This document shows, one piece after another, positions 56,012 to 64,000 of a stretch of DNA of 64,000 nt; positions within the stretch are counted from its first letter, which is position 1; each line of letters starts with the position of its first letter. Source of the stretch: Symmetrospora coprosmae (lineage: Eukaryota > Basidiomycota > Cystobasidiomycetes > Symmetrosporaceae); contig VUYT01000026.1 of the NCBI GenBank assembly GCA_008802785.1, positions 186,001 to 250,000 on the forward strand, read 5' to 3'. The notes beneath the pieces are model-generated. The model was given only the letters and a program-made list of their open reading frames with translations, was not told where the DNA came from and did no database searches. Position numbers and translations under genes: made by a program.

Positions 56012-59000
56012 TTATTTCGCTAAAGGAGCCAGGAAGCGTGTCAGCCTGGCAAGTACGACGCTTGTGACAGAAAGTGAGAGCCGACATACCATATGGAATG
56101 CGATTCTGTGCGTACTGCGCAACCGAACAAAACCAACAAGTTCAGCATCCTACATTCGAATCTGGCGAGGGCACTTTCTGGGACGCCTACCTGGAAGCGA
56201 TCGTAAATGATGCTCATGCTGTTCTCGCAAGCGTCATCGATAACAGTCATCATGTAGTTGGCAGCCTCGCGCTCTGCCATGTCGGGCTTGAAGCGGTCCC
56301 GGATCCGGTCGATGGTTCCCTCGCCCTTGAAGCTAGGGAAGTCCGTCGGCATCATCAGGCGACACGTCGAGACGACGTCCTCGGCGTAAGGTCGGCAGGC
56401 GAGGAAAGCCTTGACAGTAAGCTCGCAGAACTGTCGGTAGCCCTGCGAGTTCTTGCCGCCCATCAGCGTGATCATTTCGTGCGTGAGTTTAAACGAGTTG
56501 GGCTCGAATTTGATGCCCTAGAGGATGGAAGCGAGATCAGCTTCAGTACGCTCCTTGATGATTCGAGAAGTTGCCTCAACTTACTCCTGGCCGTAAAGAC
56601 AGAGAACGGTCAAAGGGCATGGAGGACAAGAGTTAGCCTGGCACCTTGCTCCAAAGGGATTTACACAGAGGCGTCGAAGAAACTCATCAATATCGAACAG
56701 GAAGCCGAAGTCAATGTGCGTGATGCGCCCTTCTCCGTCGATCATGATGTTGCCGTTGTGTCGGTCTTTGAGCTGGAGGATGTAGCAGAGAACGGAGTAG
56801 GCGGCCATGGACTGGATGAAATTGCTCCTAGCTCTCTGAAATGCCACCGACTCTTGTGGACCGAATTGGAACAGGAAGAAGGAAGTGAGGTCGTTGATCT
56901 TGGCTCGTCCCATTTCATCGCGCGAGGTAGCGTTGGGGACCACATCGATGATGCCCGTCCCCGGACCAGTAGCGAGCACGCGGTACGGCTGGACTTGAAG
57001 ATCGAGGCCGTTGACGTTGAACATGTTCTTGAACTGCGCGATGACCTGTAGAGCGAGCACATCCTGCCTACAGTCATCGCCGACCTTGAAGATGGCAGAG
57101 AGCATCGTCTCTTCGCGACGCTTGCGGGGCTGCCCACTCTCGCCACCCTGTAACGAGGGGAAGCCCTCGTCTGCGCCCCCATCCTTGCCGTGATCCTTGG
57201 TGTGCTCGCCACCAACTGACGTGATGGCATCTTCGTTGTACTCCTGCTCGTACTCTCGCGATACCTTGAATGTGGCCATGAAGGGCGTCTGTTCGGCACA
57301 TGTGCAAGGTGATCAGCAGAAGTGGACGGGATGACCGAACCAGAACACTACACACCTTGGCATGCGACTGCAGCGGTCGACCAGAGTGCCTGTCGATATC
57401 GATGACTTGGCCTTCAGGGTGCGACGGCAAGTAGACACCCTTCTCGACCTTGATCTTTGCCATCTCCTCATCAATCTTGGCTTTCTTCTCGGGCTTGGTC
57501 TTCTTGACGAGCGGCATGAGCTTCCTCGAGATCGATGTGACCTCATTGAAGAAGCCAAATTCCTTCTCGTAGAACTTCTTTGCTTCGCCAGACAGCGAAC
57601 TGACGATGAGGTCGACCATTCGCTCGAAGACGGCCTTGTCTGGATCTGGCACTTCGGCGAGGTCGTCTTTGTACGCGTTAGCCTTCATGTTCCAAATGAT
57701 CTGATGACAGAAGAGCTGCGAGATCTTGGAGGTCTCGAAGATGAACCGTTCCATGTAGTCTGTGGATGGCGTAGGAAGGGGGAAAGCGCCGTCAGAAGAT
57801 TCGGTAGTTGGCTCGGCATCTCGGATAGCAGACTTACGAAGCGGGTCGGTGCGAAGAGCCTGCACGACTTGAGGGACGTAGAAAAAGACAAGATCGACAG
57901 GGTGCTGCTCGAGGACGCGCATAGCGTATTGCAAGACCAGCGGCTCCTGGTTGAAAGCTGGCAGGAAGTAGCGCAGAGCCGACACCGGCGACACTGGCGC
58001 CCAGAAGACAAGGTTCTTCAGATGCGGGCGAGCAGCAGGAGAGACTTTTGATCCGAGGAAAACGTCCAGTGCCTCCGGCGATGACGAAGCCGCGAGCGGA
58101 TCGGCCAGGACCAGCCGGTGCACTTCGGCCGCCACCGCAGCGTTCTTGAAACGGCTTCGCATGAGGATGGCAAGGCGAGGGCTGTGTGTCCAAGTGTCTC
58201 GGACAATGCTAGTCCAGGCAGGCTGAAGCAGGATCTGCTTTAGTATGAATGCGGGATACGATAGGTCGAGCGCCCACTCACCTCCGTGAGTCCCTTAGCC
58301 ACATTCATGGGCGGGTCCTGGCCACGCTTGGCATCACCGAGAGGGTTGATCCACACTGCGAGACGCTGAATCTCGTTCTCGAGGTGCAGTATGAGGACCT
58401 GCTGCAGGCTCCTATACTTTGCAGGCCGTGTCTGCGAGGTCTTCATCTCGTGCTCGAACGGAAGAGTCCGGCTCGAAATATGAAGGTGCGGACCAGCGGC
58501 ATTTGCGTCATCCCGGACGATCTCGAGCAATCGCTGGATAGCCCGCACGTCCTCTTGCATCTGCAAGCGATCGGCTCCGTACGACCAGGTCGGTGCTTCC
58601 TCGAACCAGCTCAACGCTGCTGCATACAGCTCGTGGCGGTACGTTCTTTCGAGAGACGCTTCGAGGTGTGTACTGTTCAGGATTGAAAAACCGAGCGTGA
58701 GAAGCTTCATGCGCAACTCGCGGCACAGCGGGTGTTTGCTGTCAGGTGTAAAGGAACAACTTAGCTACTTTTCGTCATTGCGGAAGTAGCGGGTTTCCTC
58801 TCACCCCCAGATCTTGAAACGCTGACACGAGCGGACGACAAGCCGCATGCAGCCCAGAACGAGGTACCGGTCTCGATATCGATAGGCCTGGAAGCGACTC
58901 GAGAGGAACTCGAGAAGATATCGATGAGGCGTCAGAATCGTACGGACCACCCTGGATGCTTTCGCTATGGCGGCAATATCTGTTGGCGAGTACTCTGTTT

Positions 59001-63561: not shown

Positions 63562-63709
63562 CCTTGCTTGCAATTGCCTCGATGGATGCACCTCAGACCG
63601 TTCGCTAAGAAGGAGCGACGTCACGCGCAGGGGCCACCAAGATCCGTTGCATCATATAATAAAGGCATTACTACAACAACAGCACACACGAGCGTCACTC
63701 TGACCCACA

Positions 63710-63901
63710 TCACATCATCCCCTCCCCGCCTCCTTTCCCATACGAAATGTCGAGGTTCTTTCTTGCCCGCGCAATGTCCTCCTGGAGGTAGAGGAGCTCC
63801 TCGACACGGGCGAGCTGGCGCGCCTGCTGGGGCTTGCGCAGAGCAAAGCGGAGGTCGTCCATGCGGATTTTCTTAGCGTTTGGCGAGTGGACCGCGGCGG
63901 C
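63710..63901 (-). CDS. TAF13: TFIID subunit 13 (TAF13), 3' exon only
   Basis: One minus-strand exon of 64 codons, beginning at an acceptor (GCAAG/GCC) at 63901; the rest of the gene lies in or beyond an intron that runs past the window end. KKIRMDDLRFALRK, VEELLYLQEDIARARK and LDISYGK are the C-terminal histone-fold helices of TAF13, which pairs with TAF11 in TFIID. The gene is in tandem with STT4, its stop 149 bp upstream of the STT4 start codon. Partial because of the window edge, not damage. Confidence 0.85.
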   Translation of the reverse strand, partial: AAAVHSPNAKKIRMDDLRFALRKPQQARQLARVEELLYLQEDIARARKNLDISYGKGGGEGMM

Positions 63902-64000
63902 CTTGCACTGGGCGAGGCGAGGCGAGGCGCGAGAGAGGGAGACACCCAGCAGCGTCAGTCGAATGGTACGCGGGAAAGCCGGGCGAGGGGGAGAACAAGA

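What the first reader, a model, noticed from the sequence alone, without database searches (positions are those of the whole stretch)
56585..56694. Probable AT-AC intron beside an 8-nt exon in the STT4 catalytic core
In the PI4-kinase activation loop, family members read HIDFGF(L/I)[15 protein letters not shown]. Here FDI is followed by codon G and then ATGAGT; no GT donor nearby leads to the conserved residues. If an intron runs from AT (56687) to AC (56593), 95 nt, the next 8 nt GGCCAGGA, followed by a perfect GTAAGT donor, give G+GG CCA GGA / GGC, exactly GPGG, in phase with the next exon. The intron contains a GCTAACTC branch-like word and a pyrimidine-rich end. The donor ATGAGT is unlike the U12 consensus ATATCC, so it would be a U2-type AT-AC intron, which is rare. 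All other introns in the window have GT-AG ends in my models.
Basis: partly seen in the sequence, partly recalled or inferred. Interest (0 to 1): 0.82.

Follow-up and report, generated by a model that had tools for sequence, protein, structure and literature searches.

The report
Conserved AT-AC intron beside tiny exon
In the gene for a membrane-lipid kinase of a basidiomycete fungus, three highly conserved amino acids appear to be encoded by an 8-base exon that follows an intron with rare AT-AC ends, and traces of the same odd arrangement show up in related fungal sequences, although these fungi are thought to lack the special machinery that usually removes such introns.

Summary
STT4 lies on the minus strand. 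Removing ATGAGT...TTTAC (56687-56593, 95 nt) and joining the 8-nt exon GGCCAGGA (56592-56585, then GTAAGT) gives FDI-GPGG-IKFEP. GPGG occurs in 118 of 120 listed homologues; none of 301 enumerated GT/GC-AG combinations yields it. The strongest evidence is comparative: 23 predicted proteins (one near-identical to the window) read through the same point as FDI-Asp-(Lys/Glu). 22 of 23 fit a donor AT(A/G)AGT; no unambiguous GT was seen. In 8 the read-through forces AC before an 8-nt GPG exon; in 8 more AC fits and AG does not, in the assigned reading; 7 are unreadable. Named carriers: Rhodosporidiobolus azoricus (Pucciniomycotina) and Amylostereum (Agaricomycotina, donor side only). No U11, U12, U4atac or U6atac match was found, but U1 was missed too; basidiomycetes are reported to lack U12 splicing (PMC2846911). 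Best reading: an old U2-type AT-AC intron, absent from four close metagenomic relatives. The smut-fungus label is not supported. RNA and orthologous DNA are lacking.

The parts
56688..57288 (-). STT4 exon ending ...[11 protein letters not shown] (phase 1)
   Evidence: P0121 is identical over 197 of 197 aa
56593..56687 (-). AT-AC intron, 95 nt, U2-type signals
   Evidence: an intron at the same site in 23 read-through homologues
56682..56687 (-). 5' splice site ATGAGT (GTGAGT with A at +1)
   Evidence: 22 of 23 homologues compatible with AT(A/G)AGT
56609..56613 (-). likely branch site TTGAC, A 17 nt before the intron end
   Evidence: 10 of 13 other STT4 introns have a (C/T)T(A/G)A(C/T) word at 16-28 nt
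   Evidence: less usual distance
56593..56594 (-). 3' splice site AC (TTTAC)
   Evidence: AC forced in 8 homologues, allowed with AG excluded in 8 more in the assigned reading (6 by scan, 2 by eye), 7 of 23 unreadable
56585..56592 (-). 8-nt exon GGCCAGGA; with the flanking G it encodes Gly-Pro-Gly
56518..56584 (-). following intron, GTAAGT...CTCTAG, 67 nt (phase 0)
   Evidence: apparently the same position alone in P0131, P0134, P0137, P0139, P0157 and P0224, P0229
56041..56517 (-). open frame of the next STT4 exon from GIKFEPNSF; the true exon probably ends after YDRFQ
56659..56664 (-). competing GT donor GTAAAT; spliced to 56517 it gives in-frame [15 protein letters not shown] without GPG
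   Evidence: among the 23 read-throughs LRRLC is kept only in the near-identical P0121
56587..56588 (-). AG inside the 8-nt exon; an AT-AG splice here would leave a 2-nt exon and in-frame FDIGGIKF

Best explanation
This is a real, phase-1 U2-type AT-AC intron followed by an 8-nt exon, which together rebuild the conserved Gly-Pro-Gly-Gly after the DFG motif of the PI4-kinase STT4. Shown: the sequence, the exact reading frame, and the recurrence of compatible boundaries in read-through proteins of related sequences. Inferred: U1 and U6 recognise ATGAGT through its +2 to +6 bases (GTGAGT-like), and the major spliceosome carries out step 2 because the unusual first A is matched by a last C, as G is matched by G in ordinary introns (recalled work on yeast introns with changed first and last bases). 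Inferred: since either single change would block splicing, the pair is hard to convert to GT-AG and tends to be lost with the whole intron instead.
For: AT-AC gives GPGG, while 0 of 301 enumerated GT/GC-AG combinations do. 118 of 120 listed full-length homologues have GPGG. 23 homologue clusters read through as FDI-D-(K/E), 0 as FDI-G-(K/E); 22 of 23 are compatible with ATRAGT. In 8 (P0126, P0128, P0165, P0167, P0168, P0242, P0243, P0248) a Thr codon forces AC before an 8-nt GPG exon; 6 more by scan (P0037, P0144, P0160, P0173, P0249, P0251) and 2 by eye (P0121 ending YGQE, P0169 ending YGLE, taking a stop codon to follow) allow AC and exclude AG in the assigned reading. The near-identical P0121 has 0 of 197 exon differences but 3 of 35 in the read-through, as expected of intron (p = 0.003). 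One DNA match to the locus in the genome. U2 (2 genes) and U6 (1) were found; U11, U12, U4atac and U6atac were not.
Against: No RNA data. P0158 has His, which excludes T at +6. The acceptor is not readable in 7 of 23. The peptide scan matches 563 of 4800 shuffled peptides by chance (shuffles held at most 60 residues, four real read-throughs are longer); it gives a chance match (GG) in P0121 and the window, and P0144 has a second possible parse that would allow AG. Two more sequences, P0184 and P0307, have (A/G)T at the site and could be GT. A plain codon-usage gene model prefers the GT-AG route 56664-56518 even when AT-AC is offered at a penalty. The search for U1, which must exist, also found nothing, so the missing U12-class RNAs are weak evidence.
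Confidence: 0.92

Rival explanations
1. The main mRNA uses the canonical GT at 56664 to AG at 56518, making an in-frame kinase with DEFLRRLC in place of GPG.
For: In frame, standard ends, and preferred by the codon-usage model.
Against: It removes GPG, present in 118 of 120 listed homologues. LRRLC recurs only in the near-identical P0121 and in none of the other 22 read-throughs. It leaves the 8-nt exon and its flanking signals unexplained.
Confidence: 0.03
2. The AT donor is joined to the AG inside the small exon (AT-AG), leaving a 2-nt exon and FDIGGIKF, as main form or as a minor isoform.
For: In frame; in the sequence CAG is the first AG after the TTGAC branch word.
Against: Loses two of the conserved residues. 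AC is forced in 8 relatives whose small exon, as assigned, has no AG inside it (GTCCTGGA, GTCCCGGA, GGCCTGGA and similar, back-translated by hand).
Confidence: 0.03
3. It is a U12-type AT-AC intron removed by a minor spliceosome that this fungus still has.
For: AT-AC ends are mostly recognised by the U12 spliceosome (PMC7072748, passage); U12-class RNAs can be missed by search, as U1 was.
Against: Donor ATGAGT/ATAAGT is not ATATCC; no TCCTTAAC-like branch site by eye in the sequence printed; no U11, U12, U4atac or U6atac match; PMC2846911 (abstract passage and section 11) and PMC8199999 (passage) report that Basidiomycota lack U12 components.
Confidence: 0.01
4. Sequencing or assembly error, or a pseudogene.
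For: No read data were available.
Against: A JGI metagenome protein (P0121) has the same read-through D-E...YGQE with substitutions inside it; there is one DNA match in the genome, and a long spliced frame of 2113 aa can be built.
Confidence: 0.01

Closest known systems
U2-type AT-AC introns (AT-AC II), e.g. in voltage-gated sodium channel genes (recalled; Wu and Krainer 1999 seen only as a reference-list entry). PMC3033335 (passage) suspects 42 real AT-AC introns in C. elegans, probably U2-type
   Same: AT...AC ends with a GT-AG-like context (ATAAGT/ATGAGT) and no U12 branch site
   Different: Fungal, in STT4, 95 nt here (55-76 nt as assigned in relatives), next to an 8-nt exon, and apparently shared between two subphyla of Basidiomycota
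U12-type AT-AC introns
   Same: Terminal dinucleotides
   Different: ATATCC donor and TCCTTAAC branch site absent
Microexons of fungal genes (6-bp shortest exon in Phanerochaete P450 genes, PMC1184071, passages)
   Same: Very small coding exons between short introns
   Different: This one encodes a conserved catalytic-loop motif, and its upstream intron is AT-AC

Membership tests
U2-type AT-AC intron | Intron ends AT and AC | tested here: met
   DNA and frame in the window. In homologues the start is A(T/C) in 23 of 23; the end is compatible with AC in 16 of the 16 readable ones in the assigned reading
U2-type AT-AC intron | Donor resembles GTRAGT apart from the first base | tested here: met
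   ATGAGT here; 22 of 23 homologues allow ATRAGT
U2-type AT-AC intron | Removed by the U1/U2/U4/U6 spliceosome | not testable with these tools
   Needs splicing assays
U12-type intron | Donor RTATCCTT | tested here: not met
   ATGAGTTT
U12-type intron | Genome has U11, U12, U4atac and U6atac | tested here: inconclusive
   None found, but U1 was missed by the same kind of search
Microexon | Internal coding exon of only a few bases, included in mRNA | tested here: inconclusive
   8 nt by sequence and homology; inclusion in mRNA not observed
STT4 / PI4-kinase III alpha | PI3/4-kinase domain with best matches to STT4 | tested here: met
   PDB PI4KA E = 3.8e-36; listed homologues carry PF00454 and PF19274 and several are named STT4

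The most novel reading that the evidence does not exclude
The intron is a relic: an AT-AC intron already in the ancestor of Pucciniomycotina and Agaricomycotina, possibly a former U12 intron taken over by the major spliceosome when the minor one was lost. It has since been locked in its AT-AC state because A(+1) and C(-1) can only change together, so it is either kept as AT-AC or lost whole. Its slow splicing, with frameshift on skipping the 8-nt exon, may tune the amount of active STT4.
Probability: 0.25. Interest if true: 0.78.

Novelty: new member of a known kind. Interest (0 to 1): 0.6.

Why it matters
AT-AC introns are reported as rarer in fungi than in plants and animals (PMC7072748), and basidiomycetes are reported to lack the U12 machinery (PMC2846911). 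A U2-type AT-AC intron that apparently persisted in two subphyla, with no clear GT-AG version among the sequences seen, offers a natural test of how first and last intron bases co-evolve. It may also explain damaged catalytic loops in public STT4 gene models, and shows a class of intron that GT-AG gene finders miss inside a core enzyme.

Tried and rejected
GT/GC-AG solutions: all 301 enumerated one- and two-intron combinations (introns of at least 30 nt) failed to give GPGGIKFEP. A codon-usage gene model chose the GT 56664 to AG 56518 route even when AT-AC was offered at a penalty; I set that aside because it removes a conserved motif. Orthologous DNA: viral contigs and genome contigs gave no relative, so conservation had to be read from protein read-throughs. 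Among the short ORFs without DFGF, 6 had a frame that could be read otherwise: P0184 and P0307 have an intron beginning (A/G)T(A/G)A at the same point (ambiguous between AT and GT, not counted), P0224 and P0229 have only the second intron, P0197 and P0233 are uninformative. Ustilaginomycotina placement: not supported. Ten paper searches showed no report of this intron in their listings or in the passages I opened; one search was too broad to be informative, and the library lacks most subscription journals.

Full report
Observation. The minus-strand sequence is exactly as described. STT4 runs from about 63460 down to about 56050; a codon-usage chain of exons gives a protein of 2113 aa, whose kinase part matches PI4KA chains in the PDB at E = 3.8e-36. 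The segment ...GATATTG|ATGAGT...TCTTTAC|GGCCAGGA|GTAAGT...CTCTAG|GGCATCAAA splices to FDI-GPGG-IKFEP.

Is it chance? None of 301 enumerated one- or two-intron combinations with GT/GC donors and AG acceptors gives GPGGIKFEP. The pattern AC|GNCCNGGN|GTRAG appears in 0 of 20000 dinucleotide shuffles of the interval, and GNCCNGGN|GTRAG in 1 of 20000. Of the 120 full-length homologues listed (of 2544 found), 118 have GPGG directly after FDI, 1 (P0037) reads through, and 1 (P0075, Phenoliferia) lacks DFGF in its gene model.

Comparative evidence, donor. No related fungal DNA was reachable, but some predicted proteins read on into the intron. Searches with the exon frame (121 found, 120 listed) and with P0144 (297 found, 120 listed) gave 187 distinct short proteins, P0121-P0307: 22 read through as FDI-D, 56 run on continuously as xPGG, 6 have xPGV (5 of them fit the second intron alone, P0277 does not), 42 have no DFGF, 60 are other kinases and 1 is different. 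With P0037 there are 23 read-throughs, one of them (P0121) near-identical to the window. None of the classified rows shows the FDI-G-(K/E) expected of a GT donor at this site; P0184 and P0307, readable only in another frame, could be AT or GT. In all 23 the residue after Asp is Lys or Glu, i.e. G|A(T/C)(A/G)A(A/G), and 22 of 23 allow ATRAGT; P0158 (His) does not. The query for itself carried FDIDKS, and that FDIDEF, which favours such rows in the ranking, though GPGG rows were still listed.

Comparative evidence, acceptor. A scan for an 8-nt GPG exon in the read-through found matches in 15 of 23; that of P0121 is a chance one, which the window shows too, since their ORFs stop just after the small exon. 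In 8 (P0126, P0128, P0165, P0167, P0168, P0242, P0243, P0248) a Thr codon forces AC just before the exon, for example T-S-W-S-K = ACG TCC TGG AGT AAG. In 6 (P0037, P0144, P0160, P0173, P0249, P0251) AC is allowed and AG is not in the assigned parse; P0144 has a second parse that would allow AG, and P0037 and P0160 have a second match too. P0121 and P0169 end in YGQE and YGLE and, if a stop codon follows, fit TA(C/T)|GG..GA|GT by eye. Seven cannot be read (P0127, P0158, P0163, P0172, P0241, P0244, P0250). The assigned intron lengths in the 14 scanned cases are 55-76 nt against 95 here. Shuffled peptides give some match in 563 of 4800 cases; the shuffles held at most 60 residues, while four real read-throughs are longer.

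Breadth. Named carriers are Rhodosporidiobolus azoricus (Pucciniomycotina; donor and acceptor readable) and Amylostereum chailletii (Agaricomycotina; donor only). By best BLAST hit among the 120 full-length homologues, whose given names are all basidiomycetes, so that other phyla could not win, the others lie nearest Tremellomycetes (P0144, P0242), Cantharellus (P0165), Phanerochaete/Irpex (P0163, P0168) and other Agaricomycetes; these placements are rough, and P0126 and P0173 are ambiguous. Four close relatives of the window, P0122-P0125 (88% over 186 aa, grouped with it at 85/96), run straight through GPGG while still reading into what looks like a later intron after YDQFQ, so they are probably genomic and lack both introns. 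Tilletia and Ustilago-type sequences also run through, but many of these are annotated proteins, so loss is not shown there.

Placement. (186 kinase residues) puts the window and P0122-P0125 with Atractiella, Phakopsora and Microbotryomycetes (93/91) and apart from 8 Ustilaginomycotina rows. The whole-protein tree also keeps it out of those 8, but as a long branch near the drawn root, with its highest identity to Laccaria (43%), so its own subphylum is only probable.

Same species group. P0121, from a JGI source, is identical to the window over 197 of 197 exon residues but differs at 3 of 35 read-through residues (p = 0.003): the stretch behaves as intron, and an assembly error is unlikely.

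Mechanism. The donor is GTGAGT, the commonest donor of this gene (5 of 13 other introns), with A for G at +1. TTGAC lies 17 nt before the end; 10 of 13 other introns have such a word at 16-28 nt. In a U2-type spliceosome the first and last intron bases interact in step 2; A with C can replace G with G (recalled yeast genetics, not read here). The U12 alternative is disfavoured: no ATATCC, no match for U11, U12, U4atac or U6atac while U2 and U6 were found. The U1 search also failed, so this is weak. PMC2846911 (abstract passage, other passages and section 11 read) reports loss of U12 components and introns in Basidiomycota, with two 'other AT-AC' introns in Phakopsora and one isolated U4atac there that it takes for a remnant; PMC8199999 (passages) says the same of basidiomycetes. 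PMC7072748 (passages and one section) finds AT-AC rarer in fungi than in plants and animals. Against rarity, PMC4324775 (passages) reports 69 of 14305 Trichoderma junctions as AT-AC.

Consequences. Skipping the 8-nt exon shifts the frame to an early stop; keeping intron 1 also gives stops; two in-frame alternatives exist (GT 56664 to 56517, and AT to the AG inside the small exon), both losing part of GPGG. Correct splicing should therefore be required for an active kinase (inference).

Verdict. A real and apparently old U2-type AT-AC intron with an 8-nt neighbour exon. The kind is known; the apparent conservation in a lineage thought to lack minor splicing, and the absence of any clear GT form in the sequences seen, are the surprising part. 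The lock-in and U12-relic ideas are inference.

Noticed in passing
P0037, P0127 and P0075 (public proteins of Rhodosporidiobolus azoricus, Amylostereum chailletii, Phenoliferia psychrophenolica): Public STT4 gene models have a damaged activation loop at this point, possibly because an AT-AC intron was not modelled.
   Followed up: partly
window 56020-56153, minus strand: STT4 probably has a further intron after YDRFQ (CAA|GTAGGC); P0122-P0125 also read into unlike sequence after YDQFQ. The true C-terminus was not settled.
   Followed up: partly
window 63700-64000 and L010, minus strand: Upstream of STT4 lies a TAF13-like histone-fold gene (recalled resemblance); my simple gene model fused the two.
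   Followed up: no
L011 and L012 (G000 contig C75, about 426-429 kb): Two U2 snRNA genes on opposite strands about 2.6 kb apart; no U1 gene was detected by the Rfam model.
   Followed up: no
P0158, P0160, P0163, P0165, P0167, P0168, P0169, P0172, P0173: These nine sequences appear to have another intron between HI/HV and DFG, so the DFGFLFDI block is itself a short exon there.
   Followed up: no
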